Virus record (IMG/VR): IMGVR_UViG_3300008451_000432
Location: 1-34,935 of that record
Direction: 5' to 3' (one strand)
Length of the DNA: 34,935 nucleotides
Source: a virus
Part shown: positions 25,058 to 31,564 of the stretch, one piece after another
How positions within the stretch are numbered: position 1 is the stretch's first letter
Layout of the letters: every line of letters starts with the position of its first letter
The notes under the pieces: model-generated
Seen by the model: only the letters and a program-made list of their open reading frames with translations
Databases searched by the model: none
Told to the model about the DNA's origin: nothing
Translations under genes and position numbers: made by a program

Positions 25058-26023
25058 TTAGGCTTCGCCGATGATAACAACGCCAGCAGTATCCTTGATG
25101 CTGGTGACGCACTTATCCCAGTTAGTGCCAGTGGCAAGTTCTGCATCCGTAGGCGACTTGCCGCCGTTGGCAGCATCCCACGAATAACCCTTGAGGCGCA
25201 GACCAAACGAATAGTCCACCTGCATCGTAGTTTCGATGCGCAGTTTGCCGTTGGTGGTTTCGATGTTCGACACAACGTCACCAGCGTCATAGACGATGGC
25301 TGCGCTGTCGGCCAAACCAAGAACAGCGTCATAATCAACGCTGCTTTCAGTGAACGACAGAGCAGGGGCATCGGTGACCACGATGGCGCGGCCAAGGATG
25401 TCCACAACAGTCACATCGCCAGCAACAAACAGGTTGTTTGCGTTGGTGATGTTCTGGCCGAGCAACTTGTGGAAAGTCGCGCCCGTCATAACATCGGCAA
25501 CGATGCGCGAAGATGCGTCACCAAACAGGGCATGACCGCTGTTGATGGCGTTCTGCGTGATTTCGTTGCCAGAACCAGCCGAATACCAAGCACCAGCCTG
25601 ATTGCGAGTTGCAGCGACAGCAGCAGCAATCGCAGTATTCAACTGGTCTTTCAGCATGGCTTCGGCAAAGTTGCGCGATGCAACTTCAATGCCTTCGGCG
25701 GTCGGCTTGTTCAACCAAGTAAGCTGCGAAGGCTCAAAGCGGATGGGGCCGAAACCGCCAGCAACTTTGACAGCATTCGCAAGGTTCTGCGTCAGGTCAG
25801 TTGCAGAGGCAGAGCCGTTGGACGCATAGCGGTCAACCCGGCGCTGTGCAGCGTGAACCGAGGCAAAGAAGCTCTCTTGGAAAAAGTCGCCATCAAAGCC
25901 TTCAGTCGTGAGACGGAAAGCGCCGTTTGAGGCGGTGTTAAACTTATCAACCATCTGAGCCAGCGTCTCGATGGTGGCGGGCATGATATACTGGTTAAAA
26001 ACCTGCATCTGCGAAAGAGACAT
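25058..26023 (-). CDS. Major capsid protein (321 aa)
   Basis: The shell subunit. The N-terminal helix (SLSQMQVFNQYIMPATIETLAQMVDKFNTA) is followed by the HK97-type body: FFASVHAAQRRVDRY, WLNKPTAEGIEVASRNFAEAMLKDQLNTAIAAAVAA, IVADVMTGATFHKLLGQN, VTVVDILGRAIVVTDAPAL and the C-terminal IETTMQVDYSFGLRLKGYSW. These motifs match the phage capsid family of about 320-340 residues found in siphophages with scaffold. It starts 11 bases after the scaffold gene, and a stem-loop follows. No separate protease gene is present; a lack of a long N-terminal scaffolding domain fits the separate scaffold. Confidence 0.9.
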   Translation of the reverse strand: MSLSQMQVFNQYIMPATIETLAQMVDKFNTASNGAFRLTTEGFDGDFFQESFFASVHAAQRRVDRYASNGSASATDLTQNLANAVKVAGGFGPIRFEPSQLTWLNKPTAEGIEVASRNFAEAMLKDQLNTAIAAAVAATRNQAGAWYSAGSGNEITQNAINSGHALFGDASSRIVADVMTGATFHKLLGQNITNANNLFVAGDVTVVDILGRAIVVTDAPALSFTESSVDYDAVLGLADSAAIVYDAGDVVSNIETTNGKLRIETTMQVDYSFGLRLKGYSWDAANGGKSPTDAELATGTNWDKCVTSIKDTAGVVIIGEA

Positions 26024-26034
26024 AACTTAAATCC

Positions 26035-26640
26035 TTATTGAGCGAGTTCGGGAAAACGATTTTTAAGCGCATTTACCCGCTGCGACTTGTCCCCGCCAAG
26101 GTTGCCCTTGGGTGCTGGGGGCTGTCCATTTGCAGACTGTCCGCCGGGAGCGCCGCCCCCAACATTTGCAGGCGCTGAGACAAAATGCTTGCCTTCATCG
26201 CCAGCCGCCCACTCTGAAACAGCATCAAACAGCGGTTTGTCACCCATTAGTGCCGAATATTGCCCATTTTCGGCTGCGAGTTGCGTCTGTGATTTTAGCA
26301 TCGCCTTAACGGCTGGCATCATCTCAGGGCGCACCCCAACTTTAAGCAGGGCATCATTAAGGCCATTGTCGATTAGGTAACTTTGCAAAGCGCCATCTTT
26401 TTCTGTCAGGCTCTTGGATAGGTTATCAATCGTCTTGGCGGCCTCTTTTTGCGATTTGTCCAAATTAGCCCGCAATGCCTCAACCTCTGATTGAAGCGCC
26501 GCATATTCGCCGGGGTCAATTTCTGCGCCCTTGGCTCTCGCCTTGGTTGTTCGCAGTTCGCCTAGCAATTCGCGGTTTTTGGCGCTCAGCACCTCAATTG
26601 CTGCCTTCAATTCTTCCAATTCGTTGTTTTCGTCACTCAT
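26035..26640 (-). CDS. Capsid scaffolding protein (201 aa)
   Basis: A mostly helical protein with a long coiled coil at residues 3-85 (ELEELKAAIEVLSAKNRELLGELR and SEVEALRANLDKSQKEAAKTI), a middle helical domain to about 165, then a Gly/Pro-rich linker and a basic C-terminus (KSQRVNALKNRFPELAQ) that would bind the capsid protein. It is directly upstream of the major capsid gene, the usual order. Scaffolds guide procapsid assembly and leave before or during packaging. Confidence 0.85.
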   Translation of the reverse strand: MSDENNELEELKAAIEVLSAKNRELLGELRTTKARAKGAEIDPGEYAALQSEVEALRANLDKSQKEAAKTIDNLSKSLTEKDGALQSYLIDNGLNDALLKVGVRPEMMPAVKAMLKSQTQLAAENGQYSALMGDKPLFDAVSEWAAGDEGKHFVSAPANVGGGAPGGQSANGQPPAPKGNLGGDKSQRVNALKNRFPELAQ

Positions 26641-26743: not shown

Positions 26744-26944
26744 TCATGCAATTGGGGGAATATCACCCTTGTAAAGCGGGTCATTCACGATAAGGGCGAC
26801 ACCTTCCATCACGAATAAACCACTCTCCCAATCATCTGGGTCAGCTTGCACAAGCAGCGTTTCAATCTCAATCAAATCAGATTGCATCAAGCCTGCGCCC
26901 TTATCAGCCAGAATGGCTTGGGCTTCATCTATTTGCTTGCTCAT
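26744..26944 (-). CDS. Small acidic protein after the MuF gene (66 aa)
   Basis: An acidic protein (IDEAQAILADKGAGLMQSDL, LVQADPDDWESGLFVMEGVAL) of unknown function. Its start overlaps the end of the MuF-metallopeptidase gene by 20 bases, so both are likely made together. The acidic character and immediate position downstream of a possible toxin or protease would fit an inhibitor or immunity partner, but no homology supports this; it might equally be a head assembly accessory. The reading frame continues open beyond its stop codon for 36 codons. Confidence 0.55.
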   Translation of the reverse strand: MSKQIDEAQAILADKGAGLMQSDLIEIETLLVQADPDDWESGLFVMEGVALIVNDPLYKGDIPPIA

Positions 26945-29003
26945 TTAACAGCCTTTCAATGAGTTTTGCTGCGTCAGCGTCCACCAAATCGCGCTTGCCC
27001 GTCATATAAAGGGCAAAGTTCTCAGCAAACCACTCGTATTGGTCAGTTGTGCCGTATTTAGAGGCCTGCAAATCCTTCTGCGCACGATTAACGCCAGCCC
27101 AAATATTAATTAAGTCACGCTCCACTGGGGGCTTTTGAGCCAGCCGCGAAACCTCTTTGCCATACATCTGATGAATATGGTGGGCCATCTCATGATAAAG
27201 CACATTTCGCGCTCTATCAAAGCCATCAGCAAAATAGCTGACAGTGTTGAATGGCCGCTCTGCAACATCATTGCCGGGCTTCCATTTAGAGGCATCCCCA
27301 CCAGCCCTGCTTAGTGTGAGCAATTCTTGCCGTGCAATATTCACCTTCTGGCCCAATTCCGTAGCTTCGCGGCGGGCCTCATCCCATTTGATGAAGACTT
27401 CATCATATTCTGGGGTTCCACGAATTTGACCCAACTTTGTCGCAAGCTGCGAAATTTCACCCAGCAAAACATCGCGCCTGTCCATGTCCTTGGCAACTCG
27501 CGCTTCTAGTTCGTCCGCGAAAAATTGAGGCTTTTTGCCACCAACGCCATAGGAATAAGAATTGAAGCTGTCAGGGTTCAGATGCAAAACACCATCGCCC
27601 ATTGCGGCAATCGTTCTGCGCCCAACCTTGATGCCCCTGATTGGTGGAATGCCAAAACGCGCAGAGATGTCATCTAATTCTGGTTTCAAAGCCAGCACCA
27701 TTGATGCCGCCTCATCGTCAAACCCAGCCAGTGCAGCCTTGCCAATGTCCTTTGGCTTTACGTCACGATAAACAATTCTGTTTTCAGTGCCATAAGCAGC
27801 AGAGGTTGCGGCTGATGCCAACTGCGCATCAAGCTGCCTAATCACCTCGCGTTTTTTCAGCACTGGTGTTGTGGCAGCAGTCAACTCAGGATTTATTGCA
27901 GGAGCATTCACATCACGCGCAGGGATTGGCTTGGGTTCTGGCGTGTTGTCCACCTTCACCTTGGTAACGCCACCATATTTGGCCTTGAGTTGCGCAAGTG
28001 TCAGAGGGGTGCCTTGGGCGCTCAGAAGCTGCGACAGCGTGATTTTGCCATCGCGCCACAGTTGCGCCCGGCCTTTGCCCAACATCTCATCAGCGAAGCT
28101 GTCAGGCTTGCTGCGAAGGAATTGGTCAAAGCTAAGGTCGGCAGCAACTTGCCCGTCCATGCTTGAGCGAGTTGATGGCTGGGTGTTCGGGCCAGCTTTT
28201 CCCTCTCCATCAATCTCGGCAAAGGTCTTCGTGATAGGAATGGTGGTTGAGCGACAAGCCCAGTGTGCAGGCGGGCCGCCACCCCAAGGGATATTATGCC
28301 CTTGAGGCTCAAACTCAGGGAATGACCACGTTTTGCCAGAACGGGCGATGCAGATGTCGCTGGTGCGGCCATCTAGTGTTGAAACCCACTGAATAGCCTT
28401 GATGATGTCGGCGTTTTTCTCATAGGTCGCAATACGCGCCTCATTCGAGAGAGTTTGAACGGCAGTTCGTGTGATTGCCACAGCGTCACGGCGGGCCTTT
28501 GATAGCGCCTCTGGGCCTTTGTCAGTCCCATTTCCGACAATCGACTTGGCAATTTCCCTGTTTGTCTGCCCAAGCAAAACCCCATTTTTGATTGTGCGCT
28601 CTAGGTCAAACTGGGTTGTTTCATTCAGCTTACCCCACCACTGACCAAGGGTCGCACCTTGAATGAGCGATGATTTGCCGATGCGGTCAATCACAGGCTC
28701 TGGGGGCAGGACAGCTTCAATGCCAACTTGAGCCATGCTTGCCACTGTATAATTGGCCTCAGTCGCCGCCAGTTCGCCAATAGCAGGCTCTGGAACAATA
28801 ACCCGCGCCTTGAGTTCCTCAATGGCCTGATTAAGCCTTCTGCCTTTGTATTCCGTCAATTCTGGGCCGCGCAGTTGCTTTTCAATGTCAGCAGCAATCG
28901 CGTCATATTCTTTGTTGATGCGGATATTTTCGCCAGAGATAAGGCGCAACAGCAGCAATTGTCGAATAGCTGTCAGGTCAAGCAGGCGGTCTGAGGTGTT
29001 CAC
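26925..29003 (-). CDS. MuF head morphogenesis protein fused to a zinc metallopeptidase (692 aa)
   Basis: The MuF minor head domain spans about residues 130-270, including AITRTAVQTLSNEARIATY, TLDGRTSDICIARSGKTW and the PPAHWACRSTTIP motif at its end; it binds portal in the procapsid. A long middle region (about 300-590) is not recognised. Residues 604-608 are HEMAH, a zinc-binding HExxH, and at about 657-661 EWFAENF supplies further Glu, as in lethal-factor-like peptidases. This may be a MuF-carried toxin injected with DNA, or the phage's maturation protease. It overlaps the collagen-like gene by four bases. Confidence 0.8.
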   Translation of the reverse strand: MNTSDRLLDLTAIRQLLLLRLISGENIRINKEYDAIAADIEKQLRGPELTEYKGRRLNQAIEELKARVIVPEPAIGELAATEANYTVASMAQVGIEAVLPPEPVIDRIGKSSLIQGATLGQWWGKLNETTQFDLERTIKNGVLLGQTNREIAKSIVGNGTDKGPEALSKARRDAVAITRTAVQTLSNEARIATYEKNADIIKAIQWVSTLDGRTSDICIARSGKTWSFPEFEPQGHNIPWGGGPPAHWACRSTTIPITKTFAEIDGEGKAGPNTQPSTRSSMDGQVAADLSFDQFLRSKPDSFADEMLGKGRAQLWRDGKITLSQLLSAQGTPLTLAQLKAKYGGVTKVKVDNTPEPKPIPARDVNAPAINPELTAATTPVLKKREVIRQLDAQLASAATSAAYGTENRIVYRDVKPKDIGKAALAGFDDEAASMVLALKPELDDISARFGIPPIRGIKVGRRTIAAMGDGVLHLNPDSFNSYSYGVGGKKPQFFADELEARVAKDMDRRDVLLGEISQLATKLGQIRGTPEYDEVFIKWDEARREATELGQKVNIARQELLTLSRAGGDASKWKPGNDVAERPFNTVSYFADGFDRARNVLYHEMAHHIHQMYGKEVSRLAQKPPVERDLINIWAGVNRAQKDLQASKYGTTDQYEWFAENFALYMTGKRDLVDADAAKLIERLLNEQANR

Positions 29004-30028
29004 GGGGCCACCTTATTGACTGTGAGGATGATTGCGGGCGTTGCAGGGCGCGTTGGCGTTGTCCGTGCCGGAATGTTGGCAATATAAACCTTATCACTTG
29101 GGCATGACCATAGAATGCGGCAATATTCGCCCTTCTTGGCACGAATGAAGAAATTCCAAGCAGCCACTGTTGCGCCATTAAATGCCCCATGCTTGCTTGG
29201 CACTGTTAGGTCGGTGCAACTATCAGGCTCGTTTGTGCCATCGCGGGCAAGCCAGATGCTGACATCGTGTTCTTGGCTGTCGGTATTGTAAAGCTGGGCG
29301 CTAAACTGCACATTGAATAAGCCACTGACGCCAAAGGCAATTTTCACCCCATCCTCAACGCTGATGCCAAAATTCTCGACAACAGTGTCAAATTCCATCG
29401 GGGTCGCAGTGTTGGCTGCATGGGTCTGCGTCTGGCTATCAATCGCAGAAAGGTAAACAGGCTGGGCTGCGCCGCTGGCGATAACCCCACCGCCCCTGCG
29501 CTTTGGCTTGGGCAGTTCGATTTCAAATTCGCGCCCGTCAGTCAGGGTTATCCAAAAAGACGTTTCGTCGCGCTGCTCAACAAGCGCGATACCCACCCCA
29601 TCAGAGCCATCACGGCCATCACGGCCATCAATGCCATTGCGGCCATCAATGCCATCACGCCCATCAGTGCCAGCATCACCATCGCGCCCAGCAGCGCCAA
29701 CCAGTTCGTCGCGGTTAATCTCAAACCAGATGTCAACGGCAAGTCTAATTTCCTCGCTGGTCGGCGCTCTTCCGGCCTGTCCATCATCGCCCTTTGGGCC
29801 GGGTTCGCCATCCTTGGGTTGTGCGATGTTGGCTTCGAGCCACTGCACAGCAGCAGATTTGATTTGTTCGTCAGTAACAGCAGGCGCATCCTTACCATCC
29901 TCGCCGGGCGGGCCTCTATCGCCGGGCGGGCCGGGGATTTGCTTTTGGACAGCTAAATCATTGACCCGCTGGTTAAGGTTAGCCATCCCCTCAACCAAGG
30001 CAGTAATGATTTCATTTTGAACGGCCAT
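29000..30028 (-). CDS. Collagen-like head fibre / decoration protein (342 aa)
   Basis: A helical N-terminus (residues 1-30) precedes three stretches of collagen Gly-X-Y repeats: around 32-46 (GPPGDRGPPGEDG), 73-85 (GEPGPKGDDG) and 114-146 (GRDGDAGTDGRDGIDG and more), separated by two similar helical pieces (DEQIKSAAVQWLEANI and SEEIRLAVDIWFEINR). The C-terminal 150 residues form a beta-rich domain resembling a trimeric C1q/TNF-like head. The protein should be a trimer. Encoded between portal and MuF, not with the tail fibres, so a head fibre is the best guess. Confidence 0.7.
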   Translation of the reverse strand: MAVQNEIITALVEGMANLNQRVNDLAVQKQIPGPPGDRGPPGEDGKDAPAVTDEQIKSAAVQWLEANIAQPKDGEPGPKGDDGQAGRAPTSEEIRLAVDIWFEINRDELVGAAGRDGDAGTDGRDGIDGRNGIDGRDGRDGSDGVGIALVEQRDETSFWITLTDGREFEIELPKPKRRGGGVIASGAAQPVYLSAIDSQTQTHAANTATPMEFDTVVENFGISVEDGVKIAFGVSGLFNVQFSAQLYNTDSQEHDVSIWLARDGTNEPDSCTDLTVPSKHGAFNGATVAAWNFFIRAKKGEYCRILWSCPSDKVYIANIPARTTPTRPATPAIILTVNKVAP

Positions 30029-31564
30029 TTACAGCCCCAATCGTTCGCGTATTCCTGCCATCAGGTCGGCTTCTTGCTGATTATCTAGGTCATCATCATT
30101 GTTGTCATCAACAACAAAGACGTTGCCATCAGCATTGGTCGGCATCGCAAGGCTTGGGCCTTGGTCATTAAGCTGGGCCTCATACTCTTCAAACGTCATG
30201 TCGGGCCGGACAAGTTCGCCGCGCTGCATATTATCAAACAGCACAGACAGAGGCATCACATCACCTTGATAGGCGGCGACAAGGGCTGTCAGCATCTGAG
30301 GCTGCATCCGAGTTGCGCCAAAGTCAGTATTGAGCGAAAATTCAACAGTCTCAGGCGCTCCCACCCAAGCTGCCATCCAGTTAAGGCTGCGCTTGATGGC
30401 ATCAGAGGCGGCGCGACTGATAGAGGCCAGCACCGAGCGTTCGCCTGCTGTGCGCAACTCAACAGTGCCATAGGCTTCGGCTGTGCGCTTTTCGTCAATC
30501 AGCATCCGAGCGCCAAGCACGGCCATGCGGCCTTCTTTGTCCTTGATGGCTTCGCGCAAAGTTCCAAGGCCATCGCCCTTAAACTCAAGAAATTCAGCCT
30601 TCGCGCTGGGGTCTGGAAACACCCATGCCGACAACGAGCCAATCGCCAACACTTGTCCTGCGTCAAGCTGGACACCAGCCACATATGGGGTCGGCAGGCC
30701 AGTGAAATGCAAGCCATGCTCATAATCTGCGCTGTTGCGGTAGTGAGCAAGGTTCATGTCCACCAAGTCAAGTAGCGGCGGCTTCTGCACATTGGTGTCA
30801 GCACTATTCGCGCCCAAGATGGTGAACGGAATAAAGCGCATCGGCGCACCGCGCATCAGCGGGTAAACCTCAGACTTTAACGCGCCCTCTTCATCCATAA
30901 CGCGCACCCGATAACCCTGTTCCGTAAGGTCAAGCACCCGATATTGCACACCTGTGTTGGCTGTGAATTCGTCCTCAAACGTCTCCACATCCTCGCGCAA
31001 CACTACCAATGTCAACACCTCTGCGCCATTCATGATGGTTGTGCGCCAGTTAATCATGGCCTCCGCACTATACCAACGCAGGAAAGGCCGAGCATTCAAA
31101 GCCTCGGCAGCGGCAACAGTCAGGTTATCAGGCAAGCCTTGCGGGTAGTCCACCATGATGCCCACCCGGCCCACCGCAATCTGCTGCTCGACAACCTGTT
31201 CGCTAAACTCACGCAAGTTGATGTCAGAAAGGGTCACATCATCTGCATAAGGCACAATGGCAGTCGGCAGGACAAATTGCGGGTCTTTGGCAAAGATGAG
31301 GCCAGTCAGAGCGTCAAGGGTGCGCCCGGTGGCGTTAAAGAAGCCTGCCCGCTCCTGATATGCCAGATATTCGGCATCAGACTGCCCAACAAGCCGGGGC
31401 AAGTAAATGTCGGTGTTGTAGACCGGGTTGAACAGGGTGCCGATATAGCGTTCACCTGTCTTGCCGTTCTGGATGATGGCATCCTTACCAGCGACAACAT
31501 CGCGGCAGCGCCGCCATTTCCACTTATACGCATCATATTGTTTGTGCGTGTTAGTGACCGACAT
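30029..31564 (-). CDS. Portal protein, DUF4055 family (511 aa)
   Basis: The dodecameric portal sits at the capsid vertex and passes DNA in and out. The start (KQYDAYKWKWRRCRDVVAGKDAI) and RYIGTLFNPVYNTDIYLPRLVGQSDAEYLAYQERAGFFNATGRTLDALTGLIF section are the DUF4055 signature; later HGLHFTGLPTPYVAG and AWVFPDPSAKAEFLEFKGDGLGTLREAIKDKEGRMAVLGARML match its stem/clip region. Length (about 510) is normal. It starts three bases downstream of the TerL stop codon. The C-terminal acidic tail (DDNNDDDLDNQQEA) may face inside the head. Confidence 0.9.
   Translation of the reverse strand: MSVTNTHKQYDAYKWKWRRCRDVVAGKDAIIQNGKTGERYIGTLFNPVYNTDIYLPRLVGQSDAEYLAYQERAGFFNATGRTLDALTGLIFAKDPQFVLPTAIVPYADDVTLSDINLREFSEQVVEQQIAVGRVGIMVDYPQGLPDNLTVAAAEALNARPFLRWYSAEAMINWRTTIMNGAEVLTLVVLREDVETFEDEFTANTGVQYRVLDLTEQGYRVRVMDEEGALKSEVYPLMRGAPMRFIPFTILGANSADTNVQKPPLLDLVDMNLAHYRNSADYEHGLHFTGLPTPYVAGVQLDAGQVLAIGSLSAWVFPDPSAKAEFLEFKGDGLGTLREAIKDKEGRMAVLGARMLIDEKRTAEAYGTVELRTAGERSVLASISRAASDAIKRSLNWMAAWVGAPETVEFSLNTDFGATRMQPQMLTALVAAYQGDVMPLSVLFDNMQRGELVRPDMTFEEYEAQLNDQGPSLAMPTNADGNVFVVDDNNDDDLDNQQEADLMAGIRERLGL

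What the first reader, a model, noticed from the sequence alone, without database searches (positions are those of the whole stretch)
26925..29003. MuF head protein carrying a C-terminal HExxH metallopeptidase
The MuF domain (HWACRS end motif) is followed by a large unknown region and a C-terminal HEMAHH zinc site with a downstream EWFAENF motif, as in lethal-factor-like gluzincins. Phage MuF proteins with toxin-like C-termini are known in temperate phages. Here it could be an effector injected with DNA or the capsid maturation protease, since no separate prohead protease is visible in the head cluster.
Basis: partly seen in the sequence, partly recalled or inferred. Interest (0 to 1): 0.75.

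Follow-up and report, generated by a model that had tools for sequence, protein, structure and literature searches.

The report
Phage-head protease toxin with paired antidote
A minor protein of a phage head ends in a zinc-dependent protein-cutting domain that is exchanged between phages as one block together with a tiny neighbouring gene, as a poison and its antidote would be, so the phage probably injects a protease with its DNA.

Summary
In detail: the 692-aa ORF at 26925-29003 (-) is a MuF (SPP1 gp7-like) head protein with a C-terminal lethal-factor-like zincin. HExxH, Tyr650, Glu657 and Glu661 are invariant in 59 aligned zincin domains; the model is confident (pLDDT 95.7).

A like-placed small ORF follows the zincin in 79 of 80 relatives; the other contig ends too soon. 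Two phages 93% identical over 5.0 kb before, and 96% over 2.2 kb after, carry unrelated C-termini plus unrelated small ORFs in between. A sister phage lacks both genes as one block. Among 24 close relatives, 19 without an extension lack a small ORF and 5 with one have it.

Best reading: a MuF-type polymorphic toxin, an injected protease with its cognate immunity protein. Capsid maturation is rejected: sister phages dispense with the zincin, and 21 of 54 zincin-bearing records also carry an S78 prohead protease. The kind is known; this protease/small-protein pair, also in Pelagibacter phages without a detected integrase, is a new variant. Toxicity and injection are inferred.

The parts
26925..29003 (-). 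MuF-zincin protein, 692 aa, GTG start
27969..29003 (-). Carrier part, aa 1-345 (SPP1 gp7/MuF head protein; PF04233 at aa 135-255)
   Evidence: PF04233 9.1e-13; PHROG 241 5.1e-93; phageSPP1_gp7 1.2e-11
27969..27980 (-). Exchange junction (aa about 342-345): homology between L110 and L111 stops here, and short relatives end about here
26925..27866 (-). Lethal-factor-like zincin domain as modelled, aa 380-692
   Evidence: A6 alignment; AF2 pLDDT 95.7; profile match to lethal factor; VIA Z 11.1
27273..27551 (-). Long-helix (coiled-coil-like) insert in the zincin domain, aa about 485-577; nearly absent from the pelagiphage relatives
27180..27194 (-). HExxH zinc motif, H604-H608
   Evidence: H604, E605, H608 invariant in 59 of 59
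27021..27035 (-). E657-W-F-A-E661: presumed third zinc ligand (E657) and second glutamate
   Evidence: E657 and E661 invariant in 59 of 59
26744..26944 (-). Acidic 66-aa gene overlapping the zincin gene by 20 nt; predicted three-helix bundle; proposed cognate immunity protein
   Evidence: dN 0.27/dS 1.22 against L002
26952..26957 (-). GAAAGG, Shine-Dalgarno-like, 7 nt before the ATG of the small gene
   Evidence: read from the sequence
30029..31564 (-). Portal protein (context)
   Evidence: PHROG 145 4.3e-132
29000..30028 (-). Collagen-like protein between portal and MuF (context)
   Evidence: PF01391 3.1e-07
26035..26640 (-). Scaffolding protein (context)
   Evidence: PHROG 206 7e-21
25058..26023 (-). 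Major capsid protein, Gp13-like (context)
   Evidence: PF20036 2.9e-116

Best explanation
The two overlapping genes form a MuF-type polymorphic toxin cassette. The N-terminal 345 aa are a portal-associated minor head protein that would carry the chain into the procapsid; the C-terminal domain is a lethal-factor-like zinc endopeptidase, ejected with the DNA, that cuts one or more proteins of the next cell; the acidic 66-aa protein made from the overlapping ORF binds and blocks the protease in the producing cell. Shown here: domain make-up, an intact and conserved active site, the paired small gene, and exchange or loss of the two as one unit at a fixed junction. Inferred: head loading and ejection (from SPP1 gp7 and published MuF toxins), proteolysis, toxicity, the target, and inhibition by the small protein.
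For: (1) Cassette swap: L110 and L111 are 93.2% identical over 5,035 bp up to MuF residue 342 (carrier proteins 97.4% identical), without a match over the next 1.3 and 1.1 kb (C-terminal domain plus small ORF), then 96.5% identical over 2,165 bp; the two small proteins do not match at E 1. (2) Joint loss: L003 (95.6% identical capsid protein) ends its MuF at 344 aa and lacks the small ORF; its flank still matches the last bases of the small ORF. L096 likewise has neither. (3) Association among 24 close relatives: 19 short MuFs with no small ORF, 5 extended ones all with one, Fisher 2.4e-5; on a quick carrier tree of 29 rows at least 7 changes of C-terminus, and 5 of 5 independent pairs agree (p 0.0625). 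(4) 79 of 80 zincin relatives (the other contig ends too soon) have a small ORF of 54-92 aa, 73 overlapping or touching the zincin stop, 77 with pI under 5.5. (5) The small-ORF family goes with the zincin: 75 of 87 zincin-linked small ORFs join one profile family, against 0 of 8 that follow other extensions and 0 of 1,045 decoys. (6) Active-site residues invariant in 59 of 59; 313-residue model at pLDDT 95.7; profile match to lethal factor (E 1.9e-5). (7) Behind the MuF part of more distant relatives stand an ADP-ribosyltransferase, zeta toxin and a PI3/4-kinase-like domain. (8) Published precedents: SPP1 gp7 is targeted to the procapsid by the portal in few copies (PMC6316719, passages); MuF toxins Bxa and Apk2 are antibacterial, and a small cognate protein blocks the enzyme (PMC11699363, passages; PMC12226406, abstract).
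Against: No toxicity, protease activity, binding or virion content was measured. The window protein scores below Pfam's ATLF cut-off (18.9 against 27.4 bits), Foldseek found no PDB match at E 0.001 or better, and the VIA match to lethal factor (Z 11.1) is tied with matches to the long-helix insert. 17 of 52 full-length proteins scanned have no Pfam MuF match at E 0.01. 12 of 87 zincin-linked small ORFs, that of the pelagiphage Aegir among them, did not join the family (7 of 87). In the wider MuF set 7 of 53 short MuFs also have a small ORF close behind and 2 of 10 extended ones do not (17 of 80 loci left out). A weak zincin-like match in a Bdellovibrionales genome (L092) has no small ORF behind it. 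No integrase or resolvase was found in the window's group, so an antidote that protects lysogens is not an obvious need there.
Confidence: 0.77

Rival explanations
1. The zincin is an injected effector protease, but the small gene is its cognate chaperone or loading factor, not an immunity protein.
For: Effector chaperones can also be small, acidic and swapped with their partner (general knowledge); nothing here tests inhibition.
Against: The carrier itself is thought to be the loading domain in MuF proteins, and small proteins tested next to the MuF toxins Bxa and Apk2 neutralise the toxin (PMC11699363 passages; PMC12226406 abstract).
Confidence: 0.12
2. The zincin is a processing peptidase, as proposed for metallopeptidases of polyvalent proteins: it cuts its own chain or other head proteins in the virion or after injection.
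For: PMC5512222 (passages) proposes such a role for zincin-like domains in phage polyvalent proteins.
Against: Here the zincin is the last domain, with no further effector domain behind it to release; it is exchanged for unrelated domains and lost together with the small gene.
Confidence: 0.07
3. The zincin is the capsid maturation (prohead) protease.
For: No S78 prohead protease was found in the window.
Against: Sister phages with nearly the same scaffold and capsid proteins lack the zincin; 21 of 54 zincin-bearing records have a separate S78 protease; a maturation protease would not be exchanged for unrelated domains.
Confidence: 0.02

Closest known systems
MuF polymorphic toxins (Jamet et al. 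2017, PMC5576092)
   Same: MuF N-terminus behind the portal gene, variable C-terminal enzyme, small ORF directly downstream; 20% of their 191 toxins had a metallopeptidase domain (passages and section 5).
   Different: They found MuF toxins in temperate phages, mostly of Firmicutes, none with a known toxin domain in a virulent phage, and left many C-termini of proteobacterial MuF proteins without known domains. Here: a lethal-factor-like zincin with one small-protein family, present in phages of Pelagibacter and in Sphingobium genomes, in some records without a detected integrase. Whether their Ct_MAD profile overlaps this domain was not tested (supplements could not be read).
Bxa and Apk2 MuF toxins with tested immunity proteins (PMC11699363, PMC12226406)
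   Same: MuF carrier in the head gene cluster, C-terminal toxin, adjacent small neutralising protein (passages; abstract).
   Different: ADP-ribosyltransferase and (p)ppApp synthetase instead of a protease; other immunity proteins, some of them enzymes.
Tox-ALFMetallopeptidase of polymorphic toxins (Zhang et al. 2012, PMC3482391)
   Same: Lethal-factor-like HExxH domain used as a toxin domain.
   Different: Its table row names PVC and T2SS delivery with Imm-SuFu, not MuF (passages; section 17).
Anthrax lethal factor catalytic domain (Pfam ATLF)
   Same: HExxH, a Tyr seven residues before a glutamate ligand (lethal factor's residues recalled, from no call), and the best-ranked structural match.
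   Different: Window protein is below the Pfam cut-off; phage-borne, with a long-helix insert and a small partner gene; no link to animal cells seen.
Zincin-like peptidases of polyvalent proteins (Iyer et al. 2017, PMC5512222)
   Same: Zincin-like domain in phage virion-linked proteins; lethal factor was also their profile match (passages).
   Different: Those sit in large multidomain proteins, and a processing role was proposed.

Membership tests
MuF polymorphic toxin | N-terminal MuF domain encoded in the portal-capsid gene cluster | tested here: met
   PF04233 and phageSPP1_gp7 over cut-off; portal upstream, scaffold and capsid downstream
MuF polymorphic toxin | Variable C-terminal domain exchanged on a conserved carrier | tested here: met
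   L110 against L111 swap; at least 7 changes on the carrier tree
MuF polymorphic toxin | Small gene directly downstream that goes with the toxin domain | tested here: met
   79 of 80 zincin relatives, the other untestable; 75 of 87 in one family, 0 of 8 of other extensions
MuF polymorphic toxin | Toxicity neutralised by the small protein | not testable with these tools
   needs expression experiments
MuF polymorphic toxin | Carried by a temperate phage (association reported by Jamet et al.) | tested here: inconclusive
   PF00589 in 2 of 18 records, PF00239 in 4 of 14, none in the window or in Kolga and HTVC026P, whose records are titled complete genomes; two zincin loci lie in Sphingobium genomes
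Lethal-factor-like gluzincin | HExxH, downstream glutamate ligand, active-site tyrosine | tested here: met
   H604, E605, H608, Y650, E657 and E661 invariant in 59 of 59; roles by analogy, recalled
Lethal-factor-like gluzincin | Lethal-factor catalytic fold | tested here: inconclusive
   VIA top match lethal factor, Z 11.1, 177 residues, rmsd 3.8, tied with coiled-coil rows; Foldseek none at E 0.001 or better; profile match E 1.9e-5
Pfam ATLF | Score over the curated cut-off | tested here: not met
   18.9 against 27.4 bits; 40 of 52 full-length proteins, the window's included, match at E 0.01 or better, best 1.6e-8
Capsid maturation protease | Kept wherever scaffold and capsid proteins are kept | tested here: not met

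The most novel reading that the evidence does not exclude
In phages without lysogeny (perhaps the pelagiphages and the window's group) the pair is not a lysogen weapon but an early-infection tool: a few protease molecules enter with the DNA and cut a host defence or regulatory protein, and the antidote exists only to keep the same protease quiet while new heads are filled. The C-terminal tail of the small protein that recurs in this group (NDPxYxGDIxP, seen by eye) might plug the active site.
Probability: 0.3. Interest if true: 0.75.

Novelty: new variant of a known kind. Interest (0 to 1): 0.55.

Why it matters
Jamet et al. left open what the C-termini of proteobacterial MuF proteins without known domains do. 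One family of MuF C-termini is given here an enzyme class, a partner gene and a natural swap experiment, so it can be tested directly. 319 matching stretches in IMG/VR, fragments and near-copies included, and three cultured Pelagibacter phages suggest that such pairs are not rare. If phages without lysogeny use them, the view that MuF toxins serve lysogens needs to be widened.

Tried and rejected
Capsid-maturation protease: rejected. Chance HExxH: rejected. The first genome-contig scan with the single protein found no relative; the profile scan gave 6 loci, 3 of them weak. A scan with the 66-aa protein alone found only the already known L002 contig. Foldseek against the PDB gave nothing significant; the long-helix insert dominates its list. 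VIA for the small protein gave only low matches (best Z 6.4, staphylococcal Efb-C), taken as a common helical arrangement. NCBIfam gave no match to the small protein at E 0.01. The L111, L115 and L117 C-termini have no Pfam match at E 0.01 besides MuF and were not modelled. Literature: the listings showed no paper on a MuF/lethal-factor-like pair with this small protein; only open-licence PMC papers are held, most were seen only as titles and abstract starts, and supplements could not be read.

Limits: near-identical contigs, and contigs fetched twice (L009 = L002, L110 = L010; L088 and L089 encode the same proteins as L011 and L042), are counted separately, so counts are of records, not of independent phages. 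For one search I chose 50 of the 80 kept loci by hand (rows cut at the 5' end and near-copies mostly left out) plus the window and L002. One search uses iterative inclusion at E 0.001. In one search the small-ORF states were set by hand, and the tree is a quick one. Small ORFs were defined by fixed windows (start -45 to +25 nt of the stop, 45-115 aa; -45 to +20 nt, 45-110 aa). The host of the window's phage is unknown; the nearest capsid protein among cultured phages is 67% identical (Acinetobacter phage TCUAN1).

Full report
What is there. The ORF at 26925-29003 (-) encodes 692 aa. Residues 1-345 are a MuF/SPP1 gp7-type head protein (PF04233 9.1e-13; PHROG 241 5.1e-93; phageSPP1_gp7 1.2e-11). 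It lies in the order terminase, portal, collagen-like protein, MuF, scaffold, capsid. The C-terminal part holds H604-E605-M-A-H608 and E657-W-F-A-E661. The window is a virus record of 34,935 bases; its host is not known.

The zincin. A profile search of IMG/VR found 319 stretches that encode a relative of the C-terminal domain, of which the best 80 were kept. All 80 have HExxH, among them all 38 that fit only the other search motif. In 59 aligned domains (the window and 58 of the 80 loci, after removing copies of 90% identity or more) the invariant residues are G469, H604, E605, H608, H611, Y650, E657 and E661 in window numbering. AlphaFold2 gives pLDDT 95.7 and pTM 0.89. A profile of the family matches lethal factor chains in the PDB (E 1.9e-5 for 2l0r, weaker for the full-length chains) and, better, a zinc metallohydrolase lipoprotein (9urd, 3.1e-7). 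VIA-align ranks lethal factor first (Z 11.1, 177 residues, rmsd 3.8), tied with coiled-coil proteins that match only the insert; Foldseek finds no significant PDB match but three viral proteins at E below 1e-11. The window protein is below Pfam's ATLF cut-off, while 40 of 52 full-length proteins match ATLF, and 35 of 52 match MuF, at E 0.01 or better. I therefore call it lethal-factor-like, not a member of ATLF.

The partner gene. A 66-aa ORF (26744-26944, -) starts inside the last codons of the zincin gene, with GAAAGG seven bases before its ATG. Against L002 it has the same length, 62% identity and dN 0.27/dS 1.22, so it is very likely a real gene. Of 80 zincin relatives, 79 have a small ORF in the search window (the L037 contig ends too soon); 73 overlap or touch the zincin stop, lengths are 54-92 aa, and 77 have pI under 5.5. 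Starting from three sequences, 75 of 87 zincin-linked small ORFs join one profile family, against 0 of 8 small ORFs behind other extensions and 0 of 1,045 decoys; without decoys in the database it was 80 of 87. The pelagiphage Aegir's small ORF joins but not. The predicted structure is three helices, pLDDT 95.4.

A cassette. L003 is a sister phage (portal 79.8%, scaffold 88.5%, capsid protein 95.6% identical). Its MuF ends at residue 344 and the small gene is missing, yet its downstream flank matches the window from the last bases of the small ORF on, which looks like one deletion that removed both genes. L096 also has neither. Among 24 close relatives with a readable end, 19 without an extension lack a small ORF and 5 with an extension have one (Fisher 2.4e-5). 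In the wider set (63 of 80 loci usable, the close ones included) the association is weaker: 46 short without and 7 with, 2 extended without and 8 with (5.9e-5). On a quick tree of 29 carriers the C-terminus changed at least 7 times; 5 of 5 independent pairs agree, p 0.0625. The clearest case: L110 (this zincin) and L111 (an unrelated C-terminus with its own HExxH) share 93.2% identity over 5,035 bp up to MuF residue 342, nothing detectable over the C-terminal domain and small ORF, then 96.5% over 2,165 bp; the two small proteins do not match each other. More distant extended MuFs carry ADP-ribosyltransferase, zeta toxin or PI3/4-kinase-like domains.

Why not capsid maturation. Phages of the same group encode the head genes without the zincin, and 21 of 54 zincin-bearing records searched carry a separate S78 prohead protease (59 records in all, the 5 zincin-less ones have none).

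Who carries it. Tyrosine integrase was found in 2 of 18 records and serine recombinase in 4 of 14, all in the group of L011, L012, L014 and L042; none in the window's group or in the pelagiphages Kolga and HTVC026P, whose records are titled complete and whose gene tables name no integrase. Sphingobium genomes hold two intact copies, identical to the proteins of L011 and L042. HTVC026P's carrier matches neither Pfam MuF (E 0.1) nor a PHROG (E 0.01). Two gammaproteobacterial genomes (L091, L093) have a shorter zincin-like end on Mu-F-like carriers (PF04233 2e-13 for L091; a sub-threshold phageSPP1_gp7 match for L093) with a small ORF behind. The module thus seems to ride more than one kind of carrier.

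How it probably works. SPP1 gp7 reaches the procapsid interior through the portal in few copies; it is dispensable, but only about 25% of virions without it are infectious (PMC6316719, passages). MuF toxins Bxa and Apk2 are antibacterial and neutralised by adjacent small proteins (PMC11699363, passages; PMC12226406, abstract). By analogy the zincin enters the next cell with the DNA and cuts an unknown protein, and the 66-aa protein blocks it in the producing cell. Loading, ejection, proteolysis, toxicity and inhibition are inferred.

Novelty. MuF toxins, including metallopeptidase ones, are known (PMC5576092, passages and section 5), and lethal-factor-like toxin domains are known from other delivery systems (PMC3482391, passages and section 17). 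The pairing of this zincin with this small-protein family, also in phages with no detected integrase, did not show up in the listings. I rate it a new variant of a known kind.

Noticed in passing
window 29000-30028 (-): Collagen-like protein between portal and MuF; collagen-like motifs are reported in some capsid-associated phage proteins (PMC6316719 passage).
   Followed up: no
L111:4001-5872, L115:4001-5878, L117:2521-4626: A second kind of MuF C-terminus with HExxH and no Pfam match besides MuF, each with a small ORF behind; the small ORFs of L111 and L115 form a family of their own that L117's did not join.
   Followed up: partly
L119:5-1468: A third HExxH-bearing MuF C-terminus with a different 64-aa overlapping ORF.
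   Followed up: no
L090 (Sphingomonas sp. H160509): Zincin gene split by a change of frame, found as two pieces.
   Followed up: partly
L092:7143-8255: A lone zincin-like ORF in a Bdellovibrionales genome with a signal-like N-terminus (by eye), no MuF-like N-terminus seen by eye and no small ORF listed behind it.
   Followed up: no
L034:1527-5162, L036:3415-6990: Very long ORFs (1,211 and 1,191 aa) ending in the zincin, followed after the small ORF by a 165-aa and a 193-aa ORF of one kind instead of the scaffold gene seen in the window's group; what their extra N-terminal part is was not looked at.
   Followed up: no
L124, L130, L156, L175: Other MuF C-termini: zeta toxin in two stretches, an unassigned end, PI3/4-kinase-like, ADP-ribosyltransferase.
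   Followed up: partly
records of L011, L012, L014, L042: Serine-resolvase gene in all four of these records, and in none of the other ten searched.
   Followed up: no
HTVC026P gp47 (MN698240.1 21400-21813): Pelagiphage gene annotated as toxin-activating lysine-acyltransferase next to putative tail genes.
   Followed up: no
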